Part shown: positions 3,217 to 37,380 of the stretch, piece after piece
How the letters are laid out: each line of letters opens with the position of its first letter
Numbering within the stretch: the first letter of the stretch is position 1
Assembly (NCBI GenBank): GCA_014338005.1
Contig: QUBZ01000011.1
Span: forward strand, 1 to 64,000
Source of the DNA: Chloroflexota bacterium
Lineage (GTDB): Bacteria; Chloroflexota; Anaerolineae; Aggregatilineales; Phototrophicaceae
Reading direction: 5' to 3'
Length of the DNA stretch: 64,000 nt
The notes under the pieces: generated by a model
Database searches by the model: none
What the model was told of the DNA's origin: nothing
The model's input: only the letters and a program-made list of their open reading frames with translations
Translations under genes and position numbers: made by a program

Positions 3217-3660
3217 ATGACCGACACCCGCGAGGCAGTGCGCGCCTTTCTGGAAAGCCAGTCCACGCTGGCGCTGGCGACCGTGAACGCGGCAGGGCAG
3301 GCTGAAGTCACGCCGCTGTTTTACGTTTCCGACGAGGCATTTAACCTGTGCTGGCTGTCATCGCCGGACAGCCGCCACAGCCTGAACCTAGCCACCCACC
3401 CGCGCGTGGCCGCCGCGATTTATCCGGCGGTATGGAACTGGCAGGACATTCGCGGCCTGCAAATCGAGGGTGAAGCGGCTGCCGTCGGCGATGAGGTCAA
3501 ACGCCGGCAAATTCTGGCGCGTTATCTGGAAAAATTTCCCCTGCCGGCTGCTTTTACACAGCAGATTAACGCCAGCGTGCTGTACATGCTAAAACCACAC
3601 TGGATGCGCTGGCTGGACAACGGCGTCCGGTTTGGGTACAAGGCCGAGATTAACCTATGA
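3217..3660 (+). CDS. Pyridoxamine 5'-phosphate oxidase-fold (PPOX/split-barrel) flavoprotein
   Basis: The protein of 147 residues has the split-barrel pattern of the PPOX superfamily: TLALATVNAAGQAEVTPLFY at the first strands, then LCWLSSPDSRHSLNL and the VAAAIYP / IRGLQIEGEA strands. Members bind FMN, F420 or heme and typically reduce small molecules; the substrate cannot be told from sequence. The start at 3217 (MTDTREAV) aligns with the family; an in-frame ATG at 3187 would add ten residues. It lies 47 bases after the UbiX-type gene on the same strand, which fits a flavin-related pair, but this is only context. Confidence 0.82.
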   Translation: MTDTREAVRAFLESQSTLALATVNAAGQAEVTPLFYVSDEAFNLCWLSSPDSRHSLNLATHPRVAAAIYPAVWNWQDIRGLQIEGEAAAVGDEVKRRQILARYLEKFPLPAAFTQQINASVLYMLKPHWMRWLDNGVRFGYKAEINL

Positions 3661-3669
3661 CACTCGGCA

Positions 3670-4643
3670 CTACTTCTCCAGCAGCCACAGCGCCACCGAA
3701 GCATTAGCTTCATTTTCACCAGGGCGCGGGTAGACCGCGATCAGAGCCGCCCGCGCGTCCAGGGTGTTCACAGCTACACTGATGAGCGGCGCGCCGTCCA
3801 CCAGCGTATAAACCGCGCCGCGTTCGTTTAAAGCCGCTTCGATCTGGGGCAGGCCGGGCGCATCGGCGCAGGTCAGTTTGTGGGCAGAGGCAGCGTAAAA
3901 ATTGGCGCGGCGGCAGCTGTCGGGGAACACACTGCCGATAACCGACAGATCAGCACGCGCCAGCGTCGAGGGAAATGACTCTACGGCTTCGCGCAGGCCG
4001 TAGCCGGCGCTGTGGGAGGTGATGTGCTGGCAGCGCACATCCTCCGGCAGGGGCAGGGCAGCGGGGTCGGTATAAGCTGTTAAAACAAAGGGTATAAAAA
4101 CGAGCATCAGAGCTGCCAGCGCGGCGCTGGCGGCCAGATAACGCGCCTGCTCACCCCTAAAACGGCGAACGCCTGCCCCCAGTCCCACGCTGGCCCGCTC
4201 CGGGACGCGCACAGCGCCAGCCAGACGGCGACCACGACCAGCGCGCCCGCCTCGGCATCGCTAAAGGCCAGCCGTTCGTAAAAAAACAGATACGGCGACA
4301 TGATCCACAGCCCCCCGGCCAGCAGCGCCCCGGCAGCCCCGGACAGGCGTTTTGCCAGCGCGCAGCCGGCGGCCAGCCCGATCATACTCACGAACAGGGT
4401 AGCGATGCGCCCGGCAAAAACCGGCGCGTTTTGTGGATAAAAAGCGGCTATCAGCCAGTGATTGATGATTTTGCCATCGCTGATGGCCCAGAAAGGATGG
4501 CCGTTCCAGACTTCTACCGCCCGCGTCAGATGCAGCCCTTCGTCGTTGTGCAGCGGCAGGGCTTCCAACGCCAGCAGACGAGTTCCCCATAAAATTAGCA
4601 GCAGGAGGAGAAAATTACTTCGGGGCATGAATAGAAGCGGCAA
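3670..4643 (-). pseudogene. Broken membrane glycosyltransferase of the GT39/ArnT (PMT) type
   Basis: The N-terminal half (4643 down to about 4110) begins with a membrane helix and then LHNDEGLHLTRA, the acidic first-loop motif of dolichyl-phosphate-mannose/ArnT-type transferases, followed by more hydrophobic helices. A second frame (4212 down to 3670) carries another membrane helix and a soluble C-terminal domain ending ASVALWLLEK. The two frames overlap by about 100 bases and together give roughly 320 residues, whereas this family usually has 450-600 with 8-13 helices. The central helices are therefore missing and the reading frame shifts at the joint, most simply an internal deletion. A sequencing error could explain a frameshift but not the lost middle. 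Intact relatives transfer sugars from polyprenyl phosphate to proteins or lipids at the membrane. Confidence 0.7.
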
Positions 4644-4701
4644 AGCAAAATGACAGGCCCACAGGAGAGAGGAAACCTCCTACGATCACGCCGAAACCGA
4701 T

Positions 4702-4962
4702 CTAAATATCCCCTTCTTCGACTTCAACGCTGCGCCCGCTGTCCTTGTGCCGGTAGGTGATGCGCCCGCGTTTTGGGTCGTACATGCTCATCTCGACCTT
4801 AACCCGGTCGCCCAACAGGATGCGGATGTAATATTTCCGCATTTTGCCGGAAAGATAAGCCAGTATGCGGTGGCCGTTATCCAGTTCCACCAGGAACTGC
4901 GTATTCGGCAGCGCCTCCACGACCGTACCTTCCACTTCGATTTTGTCATCCCTTTTTTTCAT
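4702..4962 (-). CDS. infA: Translation initiation factor IF-1
   Basis: The 86-residue protein is a single S1-type OB fold with the IF-1 signature: [20 protein letters not shown], then [20 protein letters not shown] and RGRITYR. IF-1 sits in the ribosomal A site during initiation. It has about 14 more residues than the usual 72, as a charged C-terminal tail ([12 protein letters not shown]). The start has a strong AGGAGGGG site immediately upstream. It is the third gene of a minus-strand set after the S1-like and bS21 genes. infA usually lies in the spc/alpha ribosomal operon; whether this is the only copy in the genome cannot be told here. Confidence 0.93.
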
Positions 4963-7746: not shown

Positions 7747-8126
7747 CTACGCCTGATGGCGGGGCTTGTCCTGCGAAAGCACCATGATGTTGCCGCTGTT
7801 ATCCTTGAAAACAGCTTCGATGTACTGAATGATCCCAGGCTTTCGTAGCCAACTGCCGCGCAAATCTCCGTTATGCTGAGGTCCGAGTTCCGCAGGAGTT
7901 CTTTAGCGCTGGCAATACGCTGCCCCACCAGGTATTGATGCGGTGTTTGTTTATAGGTCTGTCTGAATACCCGGATCAGGTAATAAGGCGAAAGGGCTAC
8001 CGCGCGGCTCAAATCCTCGATGGTAATGGGTGTACGGTGGCTTTGATCCAGCAGCAGGCGGGCGAGATGAACTTGCTGATGCGGGTTCAAGCGCACGGAG
8101 GGTCTCTCCCGGCAGAAAGCGGCCAC
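7747..8126 (-). pseudogene. AraC-type HTH regulator fused by deletion to a VOC (glyoxalase-fold) remnant
   Basis: From about residue 15 the frame gives a good AraC helix-turn-helix pair (ITIEDLSRAVALSPYYLIR, then LSITEICAAVGYESLGSFST). There the homology stops and the frame becomes meaningless. In another frame from the same point the DNA reads [20 protein letters not shown] and stops at 7747; this resembles the last strand of VOC/glyoxalase proteins. AraC-VOC fusion regulators of about 270 residues exist, so this looks like such a gene with its middle deleted. The joint has the sequence TTCAGTAC, which fits both the AraC side (FST) and the VOC side (IQY), suggesting microhomology. The product would lack part of the second HTH and nearly all of the VOC domain. 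Confidence 0.65.
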
Positions 8127-8283
8127 TGCGGTTATTATAGCACCTTCAAGCGCAGAGGAACTGCATTCGCCCCGACGCGCTTCTGCGCGACCGGCGCGGT
8201 AGACGGCCAGAAGCCCATGCCGGCAAGACCGTTTTTATCTATTGCGATTGATGCGACAGCCCTGCACATACACCTGGACTTTG

Positions 8284-8314
8284 TTGACAAAAAAAATCTT
8301 TTGTGCTTTACTTA
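8284..8314 (+). promoter_or_regulatory. Candidate promoter of the first LacI-family gene
   Basis: TTGACA at 8284-8289 is a perfect -35 box. A weak -10 candidate (TTTACT or TTACTT) lies 17-18 bases downstream, and the palindromic operator follows at once, in a position where a bound repressor would block transcription. Confidence 0.55.
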
Positions 8315-8332
8315 AATTGAACCGGTTCAATT
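8315..8332. promoter_or_regulatory. LacI-family operator, upstream of its own regulator gene
   Basis: AATTGAACCGGTTCAATT is a perfect 18-bp palindrome with the central CG typical of LacI-family sites. Its core TTGAACCGGTTCAA recurs exactly at 9385-9398 ahead of the transporter genes, so the regulator probably controls both itself and the operon. Confidence 0.88.
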
Positions 8333-8340
8333 GGATGCTT

Positions 8341-9372
8341 ATGATGCCAACTATTCGTGATGTAGCCCGCCATGCACGAGTCTCCGTAGGAACAGTTTCC
8401 AACGTCCTTAATGGAAGTTCGCTGGTCAAAGACGAAACGCGGCAGCGTGTAATGGCGGCAATTGAAACCCTCGGTTACCACCCAACAGCAGCGGCACGCA
8501 GCCTGAGTACCCAGCGAACAAACACCATTGGGATGATCCGCAGCGAGATTCGCTTGCAGGGCAACTTGATCGAAACCGACCCAATGGTGCTGGATTTGAT
8601 TGATGGAATCACCAGCGAGGCGATTAACAGCAGCATCGGCCTAACCTTCTGGGCGATTCCGGCGGGTCAGCGCGAGATGGAACTGTACAGACGATTAGTT
8701 ACTAGCAGGCAGATAGATGGGCTTATTCTGTTTGCCCTGCGCGAAAAAGACCCCCGTGTCGCTTATTTACAGGAGCAGGCTTTCCCGTTTGTCATCTTTG
8801 GACGATTTGAATCAATGGAAGGGGACAACTGGATTGATGTTGACGGTGCTGCCGGCATCGAAGCCGCTGTCAGACACCTTGCTGAACTGGGACACCGGCG
8901 CATCGCTTATCTTTCCCCGCCGCATGAACAGTCTCTGACTCGTTTGCGCTGGCAAGGGTTCGTCAGGGGGATGGAGGAGATGAACCTGTCAATTGACCCG
9001 GCGCTCATTTATGAAGGGGATTTCAGTGAGAAATCCGGGCAGTTAGGCACTCATTACTTTCTCGATCAGCCCAACCCGCCAACAGCCATCTTCTGCAACA
9101 ACGACCGAATGGCTTTTGGGGCCATGCGTGCCATTCAAGCGCGCGGTCTGACGGTCGGCAGCGACGTGTCTGTAGTCGGCTTTGATGATATTTCCCTGGC
9201 ACGTTACAGCAATCCTCCTCTGACAACACTGAACCAGCCAATTCATGACATCGGCAAGGCACTTTTCAACTTGCTCATAAAACTGATTAACCGAGAACCG
9301 ACTGACTTACTCGGCGGCAAACTATTGAAACCCGAACTGGTTATTCGCCAATCGACCGGGAGGCCGCGTTAA
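8341..9372 (+). CDS. LacI-family transcriptional repressor of the dextran-type operon
   Basis: The N-terminus is a standard LacI HTH and hinge: PTIRDVARHARVSVGTVSNV, then YHPTAAARSL. Residues about 60-340 form the periplasmic-binding-like sensor with FCNNDRMAFGAMRA and VSVVGFDDISLARYSNPPLT near the end. The start is taken at 8341; ATGs at 8335 and 8344 are also in frame. The protein should bind the palindromes on both sides of its gene and release them on binding a sugar. The genes controlled (binding protein, two permeases, GH66, GH15) suggest an isomalto-oligosaccharide or related glucan inducer, which is inference. Confidence 0.93.
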   Translation: MMPTIRDVARHARVSVGTVSNVLNGSSLVKDETRQRVMAAIETLGYHPTAAARSLSTQRTNTIGMIRSEIRLQGNLIETDPMVLDLIDGITSEAINSSIGLTFWAIPAGQREMELYRRLVTSRQIDGLILFALREKDPRVAYLQEQAFPFVIFGRFESMEGDNWIDVDGAAGIEAAVRHLAELGHRRIAYLSPPHEQSLTRLRWQGFVRGMEEMNLSIDPALIYEGDFSEKSGQLGTHYFLDQPNPPTAIFCNNDRMAFGAMRAIQARGLTVGSDVSVVGFDDISLARYSNPPLTTLNQPIHDIGKALFNLLIKLINREPTDLLGGKLLKPELVIRQSTGRPR

Positions 9373-34860: not shown

Positions 34861-35952
34861 TCAGGGAACGACTTCGACCAGCCAGGACTGGATGACCATC
34901 TCCACGGTGCCGCCCGGTTTAGGATCAATGATAAACAGCTGCCCGGTGTTCGGGTCAATTCTGTGGACTTTGGCCGTGTTTTGCGGCGCGAACAGCGCCC
35001 CGGCAACTTCGTTCATCATGTGAGGCATATAATAGTTGGCGCGCGTGCCTTCCAGCGGCCTCATGGAAACACCTTCTCTGAACTGCGGCTCGCGGGCTGC
35101 TGGCGTTTCAGACAACATCAGGCGCAAATAACCGCCTGCCGGGAAATTGTGAAAGAGTCCGGCGTGCGGGTAAATGCGGATAAATCCTTCTTCCATCAGC
35201 TTAAACAGGTCAAGCGGCGGATTGAGCCGCGCTAACTGCTTCATGAAGCTGGAACGCGCGTTCGCCACTACCGGACTGAGCCAATCCTGGCCGTCAAAAC
35301 TTTCGCTGATGGATAAATCCTTGTTGGCGATTAGAACCACCTGGGTATCTCTGTCGAGAAACGACAGGCTCAGATCAATATAACCCCCGCTGATCTGGAT
35401 GATCTGAAAATCCCGGATAAAACCGGCTTCTTCAACGCTCCCTGAAGGCCGTATGCTGACGGAAAGCACACCCACGAAATCATCCACAACCGCCGTATCT
35501 ACTGCCGGGCCAGTCTGAATGATGATCGCGCGATCTCTGGATACGAACGCAGGGTCACTTGCGACCAGATCGCCGGTGAGGCTTGTACTGTAGCGCCCGC
35601 TGCATCGCGCGCCCGGCGAAACATTATTAACGCCGTACATATCTCTATTGACAGTTCTGGCAGCTCGATAGCCGCCGTTCTGGGCATCGGTGGCGATTTC
35701 ATATAAATGTAAGGTGAGGTTTGATGCCGGGCCGCTGAAAACGGTCACTTTCGCGTCCTGGGGAATAACAAGCCCCAAAAGCTGACTGCCGCCGAGGGTA
35801 ATCAACGAGGGCGGCGCTGCTTCGGGAGCAGTCGGTTCGACACAGATGTGAACGGTAGAGTCGGATGACGCCTGCCCTGAAACCCGGAAAGCGGGCGTAA
35901 TCAGCAGACCGAACAGCAGAATAGCCAGGAAGAAAGACCTAAAACGAACCAT
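34861..35952 (-). CDS. Secreted hypothetical protein
   Basis: The 363-residue protein has a clear Sec signal peptide (FFLAILLFGLLITPAFRVSG) and two regularly spaced cysteines soon after it (HICVEP, GARCSG), which could form a disulfide. The rest is predicted beta-rich, with strands such as VVDDFVGVLSVSIRP and TQVVLIANKDLSI. I do not recognise a family. It starts 48 bases after the stop of the TIR-FGS gene and runs into the dehydrogenase gene with a 10-base gap, so it is the middle gene of a likely three-gene operon. Confidence 0.75.
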   Translation of the reverse strand: MVRFRSFFLAILLFGLLITPAFRVSGQASSDSTVHICVEPTAPEAAPPSLITLGGSQLLGLVIPQDAKVTVFSGPASNLTLHLYEIATDAQNGGYRAARTVNRDMYGVNNVSPGARCSGRYSTSLTGDLVASDPAFVSRDRAIIIQTGPAVDTAVVDDFVGVLSVSIRPSGSVEEAGFIRDFQIIQISGGYIDLSLSFLDRDTQVVLIANKDLSISESFDGQDWLSPVVANARSSFMKQLARLNPPLDLFKLMEEGFIRIYPHAGLFHNFPAGGYLRLMLSETPAAREPQFREGVSMRPLEGTRANYYMPHMMNEVAGALFAPQNTAKVHRIDPNTGQLFIIDPKPGGTVEMVIQSWLVEVVP

Positions 35953-36000: not shown

Positions 36001-37380
36001 TCAGGGTGAGCCGTATCGCCCACACCGGAAACCAATAACGTCTGATGTAATCTGGGGATTGAGTTCCATCCGCTCTGGCGTGTCCCTGCCGTTGCCGCGA
36101 GTGATGGCGATTTCCGGGCTTTCATCCTGGCTGCCTACCCATTCGCTGACCCGCCCCCCCAGGCCGCGATCGTGCCGAGACGCGGTTATCCATTCATCTT
36201 CCGTCGGAAGCCGCCCGCCGGAATAAATGCAGTAGTCGCTCGCCATGCGCCACGATACATATACCACCGGCTCGCTATCGAAGCTCAGGTCATACAGTCG
36301 CCGCTGATTACTGGGCGGGCTGCATTTTTGAGCCTGCACGCAGGCCTTGTACTGCTTGTTGGTGGCTTCAAAAGGGTCTACCAGAAAAACAGGCGCGTCT
36401 GTTTCGGTCGGCGGCGGCACGATCACCTGGATAGATGGTGTGAGGGTCGGCATAAGCGTGAATGTCAAAGTCGGCGCGGGTGTATATGTCGCTGTAGGGG
36501 CGTCGGTGAAAGTCGCCGATGGCGCGCGCGTTGGTGTGCTGGTTGGCGTAACCGTCGGAGAAAGCGTATCTGTATCTGTGGGATGCGGGGTATTGGTCGG
36601 CTGCGGCGTTGGAGACGCCGTTGGAGTCTCCGAAGGGGTATAGGTTGGTGTCGAGGAAGAATCGGCCAAAAGCGCAGCGGCGGTTTCCGTCGCGGCTGTT
36701 TGGGTATTTTCCACCATTCCTCTGATGGCAGCAATACCGACAATACCGGCGATTCCGAAAACAAAGACAGCTATGATGATGGATGCTGTTAATCTGCGCT
36801 TGGGTTTTGGACTCAGTAAAGGCTGTGGGGGCGTCTCTAGCGGTGAAGGGGCAGGTTCGATGTCTGAAGTGGCAGACGGGTCGGCAGGCGGCACTATCGG
36901 TATGCCGCCAAGTGGCGTAAAGGGGATTGGTATTGGCTTGAGGGAAGAAGATCCGTCAGTGTCTAGATAACGCTTCACCATCTTTATGAGTACATCTATT
37001 GCGTTATCAATATACAGACCCCTTTGATCCAGAATATGCACACCTTGATGTTCTAATAACTGCTGAACGTGTGGCTCACAATCTCCCGATGGTTCTACGA
37101 AAGCCTCTTGAAATACCGGAATCATTGGCTTCTTATGTTCATAAGCATGTTGAATTTCTATGTTAACCCATCTCGATGCCAGTGTATTATATCCTAAAAT
37201 ACATATAAATATATCACTATTTTCCAATTCTTTCTTTAAGTGTTTAGGGAAAGTACCCACACTATCTGTCTTTGTAACGTCGACAAATACGTCAATATTC
37301 TGCTGTTTTAATTTTTCGCGGATCAAAAGAGCTAATGAAATACTATAATCACGTTTGTAGCTGATAAAAACTTGTGGCAT
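36001..37380 (-). CDS. Transmembrane TIR-domain protein with extracellular FGS (SUMF1-like) domain
   Basis: The start at 37380 (MPQVFISYKRDY) gives 459 residues. Residues 3-137 form a TIR domain (VFISYKR, NSDIFICILGYNTLASRW, MIPVF); Glu75 in WVNIEIQHA is in the place of the catalytic glutamate of TIR NADases. A Pro-rich spacer leads to one membrane helix at about 197-219 (ASIIIAVFVFGIAGIVGIAA). A Thr/Pro stalk (about 240-325) and a compact domain like formylglycine-generating enzyme follow: VDPFEATNKQYKACV, PVVYVSWRMASDYC, GGRLPTEDEW, and IGFRCGR at the end. At about 125 residues it is half the usual size and lacks the full RGGSW region, so it is probably a binding module. The TIR part is AT-rich, the FGS part GC-rich. 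Such TIR-FGS proteins suggest ligand-triggered signalling or defence. Confidence 0.88.
   Translation of the reverse strand: MPQVFISYKRDYSISLALLIREKLKQQNIDVFVDVTKTDSVGTFPKHLKKELENSDIFICILGYNTLASRWVNIEIQHAYEHKKPMIPVFQEAFVEPSGDCEPHVQQLLEHQGVHILDQRGLYIDNAIDVLIKMVKRYLDTDGSSSLKPIPIPFTPLGGIPIVPPADPSATSDIEPAPSPLETPPQPLLSPKPKRRLTASIIIAVFVFGIAGIVGIAAIRGMVENTQTAATETAAALLADSSSTPTYTPSETPTASPTPQPTNTPHPTDTDTLSPTVTPTSTPTRAPSATFTDAPTATYTPAPTLTFTLMPTLTPSIQVIVPPPTETDAPVFLVDPFEATNKQYKACVQAQKCSPPSNQRRLYDLSFDSEPVVYVSWRMASDYCIYSGGRLPTEDEWITASRHDRGLGGRVSEWVGSQDESPEIAITRGNGRDTPERMELNPQITSDVIGFRCGRYGSP

What the first reader, a model, noticed from the sequence alone, without database searches (positions are those of the whole stretch)
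36001..37380. Transmembrane TIR protein with an extracellular FGS (formylglycine-generating-enzyme-like) domain
One protein joins a cytoplasmic TIR domain with the NADase-position glutamate (Glu75), a single membrane helix, a Thr/Pro stalk and a compact extracellular FGS domain. FGS and C-lectin-like domains serve as variable ligand binders in diversifying conflict systems, and TIR domains commonly degrade NAD or signal. Here the sensor would be outside and the effector inside, which reads like a bacterial surface receptor. The FGS part is only about 125 residues and probably non-catalytic.
Basis: partly seen in the sequence, partly recalled or inferred. Interest (0 to 1): 0.75.

Follow-up and report, generated by a model that had tools for sequence, protein, structure and literature searches.

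The report
Bacterial surface TIR receptor with FGS ectodomain
A Chloroflexota bacterium carries a one-gene membrane protein that looks like a surface receptor, with a non-enzymatic binding domain outside the cell and a SARM1-like NAD-consuming (TIR) domain inside, and related bacteria have rebuilt this same layout repeatedly by swapping parts.

Summary
Window 36001-37380 (minus strand) encodes 459 aa: TIR (1-140), one membrane helix (about 197-222, KPKRR on the TIR side), a Thr/Pro stalk, and a compact FGS/C-lectin-fold domain (321-459). AlphaFold models are confident for both domains (pLDDT 90 and 86). Closest solved structures are the NADases SARM1/TIR-1 for the TIR, with Glu75 on the catalytic Glu, and FGE/EgtB plus the variable lectins TvpA and Mtd for the FGS. 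The FGS lacks the FGE cysteines, so it is probably a binder. The architecture is not unique: I found ten more TIR-TM-FGS proteins in the same family (one carries an in-frame stop), plus sister proteins with SH3 or CARDB ectodomains. The TIR tree shows the architecture is polyphyletic, so parts were shuffled. The window copy is the oddest: its FGS lacks about 90 residues, and its TIR half is 36% GC in a 58% GC window, so the gene is a mosaic. The genome has no reverse transcriptase (no retroelement diversification) and no ThsA-type Thoeris partner was found. Most likely it is a stand-alone surface sensor that clusters a SARM1-like NADase when an outside ligand binds. Ligand, NADase activity and purpose are untested.

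The parts
36001..37380 (-). whole gene: TIR - membrane helix - Thr/Pro stalk - compact FGS, 459 aa
   Evidence: ORF; Pfam; hydropathy
36961..37380 (-). TIR domain (residues 1-140), SARM1-like
   Evidence: Pfam TIR_2 1.2e-14; profile best hits SARM1/TIR-1 7e-18; AF2 pLDDT 90, Z 18.9 to TIR-1; DNA GC 0.357, lowest in the window
37156..37158 (-). codon of Glu75, aligned with the catalytic Glu of SARM1/TIR-1; invariant in the 23-row alignment
36793..36960 (-). cytoplasmic Pro-rich linker (residues 141-196) carrying KPKRR next to the membrane helix
36715..36792 (-). single membrane helix (about residues 197-222)
   Evidence: Kyte-Doolittle 2.93, positive-inside N side
36421..36714 (-). Thr/Pro-rich stalk (residues 223-320)
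   Evidence: 30 Thr and 17 Pro in residues 225-320
36004..36420 (-). compact FGS / C-lectin-fold ectodomain (residues 321-459), no FGE catalytic cysteines
   Evidence: PF03781 3e-14; AF2 pLDDT 86, pTM 0.84; EgtB Z 13.9, FGE 12.8, TvpA 12.1, Mtd 10.3; alignment showing the missing segments
34861..35952 (-). downstream ORF, 363 aa, signal-peptide-like start, 48 bases after the TIR-FGS stop; possibly co-transcribed secreted protein of unknown family (link is weak)
   Evidence: no Pfam or NCBIfam hit; no homologue in 16 other genomes of the genus

Best explanation
A stand-alone, single-pass surface receptor (N-terminus inside, C-terminus outside). Shown by sequence and prediction: a SARM1-type TIR with the catalytic Glu, one membrane helix with a positive-inside flank, a mucin-like stalk, and a compact FGS/C-lectin fold without the FGE copper-site cysteines. 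Inferred: the FGS binds a ligand at the cell surface (another cell, a phage part, a glycan or a peptide); binding or crowding brings TIR domains together; the TIR assembly then cleaves NAD+, and the cell responds by growth arrest or death, or by ADP-ribose-type signalling. Because Chloroflexota generally have a single membrane (general knowledge), the FGS would face the true outside.
For: Domain calls and topology. TIR profile and fold closest to the NADases SARM1/TIR-1, Glu75 invariant in 23 rows. The compact FGS is predicted with good confidence and matches FGE/EgtB and the ligand-binding TvpA and Mtd. The layout recurs: ten further TIR-TM-FGS proteins in four genera of the same family (genus codes). 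The same TIR-TM-stalk chassis carries SH3 or CARDB ectodomains instead. The architecture label is scattered on the TIR tree (7 changes, at least 3 forced by well-supported branches), i.e. it was assembled or lost more than once. No conserved partner gene near the loci and no STALD/ThsA over cut-off in the genus, which favours a one-gene system.
Against: No ligand, activity or expression data. The window copy has a long branch in both trees (0.96 for TIR, 4.4 for FGS) and a reduced FGS, which could also mean relaxed constraint. No close orthologue was found, so selection could not be measured. No full-length match in 16 sister genomes of the genus. Membrane topology is a prediction.
Confidence: 0.55

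Rival explanations
1. The TIR is a scaffold or adaptor that oligomerises and recruits other proteins (for example the TIR-Ser/Thr kinase or TIR-WD40 proteins of the same genome) rather than a NADase; the receptor signals through TIR-TIR contacts as animal Toll receptors do.
For: The genome encodes more than a dozen other TIR proteins, including TIR-kinase, WD40, NTPase and response-regulator fusions. Tolls are single-pass TIR receptors.
Against: The catalytic Glu and the SARM1-like motifs are kept even in the fast-evolving window copy; animal receptor TIRs (IL-18R beta Z 14.9, a Hydra Toll-related receptor Z 14.5) rank below SARM1/TIR-1 (Z 18-19) in the structure comparison.
Confidence: 0.2
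2. The TIR makes a cyclic ADP-ribose-type messenger for a separate effector, as in Thoeris.
For: ThsB models of PADLOC and the NCBIfam Thoeris type III ThcB4 model are the best-named hits for the TIR.
Against: The ThcB4 score is far below the equivalog cut-off (50 against 220 bits); no STALD domain over cut-off in any genome of the genus; no conserved neighbour; the best solved sequence matches are SARM1-type NADases.
Confidence: 0.12
3. The window gene is a decaying relic: a fused receptor whose FGS is eroding and which no longer binds anything.
For: About 90 residues are missing from the FGS in several places, branches are long, the sister copy on contig C78 carries an in-frame TGA at a conserved Trp, and no orthologue was found in relatives.
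Against: All the missing segments are in frame, no stop occurs in 459 codons, catalytic and core residues are kept, the compact FGS still models as a complete fold, and the FGS reading frame is unlikely to stay open by chance (0.6% of shuffles).
Confidence: 0.13

Closest known systems
SARM1 / TIR-1 (TIR NADases)
   Same: closest TIR by sequence profile and by fold; catalytic Glu and the SY[RK]R and WVxxE motifs kept
   Different: SARM1 is ARM-SAM-TIR and senses NMN/NAD+ inside the cell; here the TIR is N-terminal and tethered to a membrane helix and ectodomain
FGS/C-lectin conflict proteins (PMC7159879; PMC8195603; PMC10907252)
   Same: an FGS domain at the C-terminus proposed as the sensor, TIR among the effectors, multicellular-type bacteria including Chloroflexota
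   Different: those are mostly cytoplasmic, with a STAND NTPase, MoxR-vWA or peptidase partner and often a DGR; here it is one protein, no NTPase, no DGR, the FGS outside and the TIR inside
Animal Toll-like receptors
   Same: single-pass, ectodomain outside, TIR inside
   Different: opposite order of parts (TIR first), FGS instead of leucine-rich repeats, enzyme-type TIR; resemblance of layout, not shared descent of the receptor
Thoeris ThsB / ThcB4
   Same: best-named bacterial TIR models
   Different: ThcB4 below cut-off, no ThsA-type (STALD) partner found, membrane receptor layout
DGR variable proteins TvpA and Mtd
   Same: same C-lectin/FGS fold (Z 12.1 and 10.3)
   Different: no reverse transcriptase in the genome

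Membership tests
SARM1-type TIR NADase | TIR fold with catalytic Glu in WVxxE | tested here: met
SARM1-type TIR NADase | NAD+ hydrolysis | not testable with these tools
   needs an assay
Formylglycine-generating enzyme | FGE fold | tested here: met
Formylglycine-generating enzyme | catalytic cysteine pair after RGGS (human Cys336/Cys341) | tested here: not met
   no cysteine in that region; only C347, C353, C384, C453 in the ectodomain
DGR-diversified variable protein | reverse transcriptase in the locus or genome | tested here: not met
   no RVT_1 in the 97% complete genome; the same search rang in control genomes
Thoeris with a STALD-type ThsA | ThsA effector with STALD domain encoded in the genome | tested here: not met
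   no STALD over cut-off in 17 genomes of the genus; no partner at related loci. This does not cover every ThsA type
Thoeris type III ThcB4 | NCBIfam NF058526 over 220 bits | tested here: not met
   50 bits
TIR-TM-FGS receptors of Phototrophicales/Aggregatilineales-type Chloroflexota (group defined here) | N-terminal TIR, one membrane helix, low-complexity stalk, C-terminal PF03781 | tested here: met
   window and ten relatives
TIR-TM-FGS receptors (group defined here) | FGS belongs to the main clade of TIR-fused FGS domains | tested here: inconclusive
   window FGS falls outside the clade of the others (99/98), but forcing it in is not rejected, p-AU 0.23

The most novel reading that the evidence does not exclude
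A bacterial counterpart of Toll-like receptors: a rapidly shuffled family of membrane TIR NADases with interchangeable ectodomains (FGS, SH3, CARDB and others) that lets a Chloroflexota cell sense something outside and trigger NAD-based death or arrest, diversified by domain swapping rather than by retroelements.
Probability: 0.35. Interest if true: 0.85.

Novelty: new variant of a known kind. Interest (0 to 1): 0.62.

Why it matters
Most known bacterial TIR immune proteins sense trouble inside the cell. A family with the sensor outside and a SARM1-like NADase inside would mean bacteria can couple surface recognition to NAD+ loss in a single protein, an arrangement usually thought of as animal. 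It is directly testable with one gene in a laboratory strain, and the natural ectodomain swaps give ready-made controls.

Tried and rejected
DGR diversification: rejected, no reverse transcriptase. Thoeris partner: not found. Phage or plasmid origin of the AT-rich TIR: no relative in viral contigs or plasmids. Conserved operon partner: BLAST among neighbours of the TIR loci gave only TIR proteins and one secreted pair beside TIR-TM-SH3 genes, none shared with the window. TIR-FGS fusions on plasmids with a relative as query: no place covers 80% of the query; the 25 best rows are FGS-only matches. Independent origin of the window FGS: suggested by the tree and by the CVxxxxCxPP motif shared with non-TIR FGS proteins, but not established (p-AU 0.23). 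Empty-site comparison with sister genomes G005 and G006: not possible, their contigs end on either side of the locus (window about 33588 and 37448 in G005, 34157 in G006). Literature searches found no description of a TIR-TM-FGS receptor; only open-licence papers are held, so this is weak evidence of novelty.

Full report
What is there. The ORF at 36001-37380 on the minus strand encodes 459 residues. Pfam finds TIR_2 at 4-95 (1.2e-14) and FGE-sulfatase at 323-434 (3e-14, profile positions 28-151 of 255), both above the curated cut-offs. Between them lie a Pro-rich linker with KPKRR, one strongly hydrophobic helix (Kyte-Doolittle 2.93 at 201-219) and a Thr/Pro stalk. Four K/R before the helix and at most one after it predict TIR inside and FGS outside; the thirteen relatives scored all have as many or more K/R on the TIR side.

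The TIR. A profile of 23 related TIRs finds SARM1 and TIR-1 as best solved sequences (7e-18). The AlphaFold model (pLDDT 90, pTM 0.87) is closest to TIR-1 (Z 18.9) and SARM1 (Z about 18). Glu75 is invariant in the alignment and sits on the catalytic Glu of those NADases. NADase competence is therefore a strong prediction, not a measured fact.

The FGS. The window domain is about 90 residues shorter than the FGS of its relatives. It lacks the first strand with the LVPxGxFxMG motif and the middle YPWG...SWVGA.DM segment, and the region around RGGSW is shortened. The gene is open throughout, so the losses are in frame. AlphaFold with 16 rows gives pLDDT 86 and pTM 0.84 for the best model (the five models range from 71 to 86). 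Solved neighbours are EgtB (Z 13.9), FGE (12.8), the variable lectin TvpA (12.1) and Mtd (10.3) (Foldseek). The FGE catalytic cysteine pair is absent, so a binding role is more likely than catalysis. That FGS domains act as sensors in conflict systems is a published proposal (PMC7159879, PMC8195603, PMC10907252).

Relatives. The TIR subfamily is almost confined to this order. At E<=1e-20 it occurs in 36 of 98 genomes of the family and in one of 400 genomes drawn across the phylum, the window's own; at E<=1e-25 in 33 of 154 genomes of the order. Ten further proteins have the TIR-TM-stalk-FGS layout: contig C78 of the same genome (with one in-frame TGA at a conserved Trp), L071, L073 (two adjacent genes), L076, L079, L087, L102, L103 and L117, spread over four genera of the family (genus codes). 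Pfam confirms both domains in all of them except C78, which was not scanned by Pfam but gives TIR and FGS matches in the genome searches. The same TIR-TM chassis carries an SH3 domain in L070 and a CARDB domain in L077. Other layouts include TIR-kinase-TM, NTPase-TIR, ectodomain-TM-TIR and TIR-FGS without a helix (labels other than the Pfam-scanned ones are by eye).

Shuffling. On the TIR tree the TM-FGS label needs seven changes, at least three forced by well-supported branches. On the FGS tree the other nine TIR-fused FGS domains included form one clade (99/98, together with one non-TIR FGS), even though their TIRs differ in type; the window FGS lies outside on a very long branch. Forcing it into that clade is not rejected (p-AU 0.23), so an independent origin is only suggested.

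Mosaic composition. The TIR half is 35.7% GC (GC3 0.31), the lowest 420-base stretch in the window (mean 58%, sd 5.4%); the stalk and FGS are 59%. This fits a TIR module acquired from AT-rich DNA. No source was found in viral contigs or plasmids.

Mechanism. The best-supported model is a one-gene surface receptor: ligand outside, TIR clustering and NAD+ cleavage inside. No DGR, no STALD/ThsA over cut-off and no conserved neighbour were found, so the protein probably acts alone. Whether it serves phage defence, rival or kin recognition, or development cannot be told from sequence.

Limits. No ligand, activity, expression or selection data. The window copy has no close orthologue in the genomes searched. 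C78 and the compact window FGS show that members can degrade or shrink, so a relic is not excluded for the window copy itself. Searches outside the phylum were limited to viral contigs, plasmids and one pattern-based genome scan, so how widespread the layout is beyond this order is unknown.

Noticed in passing
L059:556-2193 (own genome, contig C192): DUF4062 (PF13271, 2.1e-21), reported in a 2026 preprint (PMC13174449) as a TIR-like NADase, fused to a full FGS domain (7.1e-45): a second NADase-type plus FGS combination in the same genome, without the membrane part.
   Followed up: partly
L010 (own genome, contig C78 about 7831-9228): Sister TIR-TM-FGS gene with a single in-frame TGA at the conserved Trp of the RLPTEAEW motif; sequencing error or a broken copy.
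   Followed up: partly
L073:973-2859 and 3370-4956: Two adjacent TIR-TM-FGS genes with different TIR types in one relative, a natural case of duplication with TIR exchange.
   Followed up: yes
L108, L109, L113, L114, L115, L118, L119, L080: Reverse-order receptors: ectodomain, membrane helix, C-terminal TIR (Toll-like order), one with a vWA-like ectodomain by eye.
   Followed up: no
L018:2457-3791 (own genome, contig C109): Response regulator - GAF - TIR fusion: a two-component receiver joined to a TIR.
   Followed up: no
window:187-2494: Two adjacent WD40 beta-propeller proteins in a lower-GC stretch (47%), the second with a signal-peptide-like start.
   Followed up: no
window:30185-32352: Tandem membrane-anchored or secreted Kelch-propeller proteins.
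   Followed up: no
L067 (own genome, contig C159): Another divergent, shortened FGS (PF03781 below cut-off) at the C-terminus of a membrane-SH3-stalk protein, so compact FGS domains may not be limited to the window gene.
   Followed up: no
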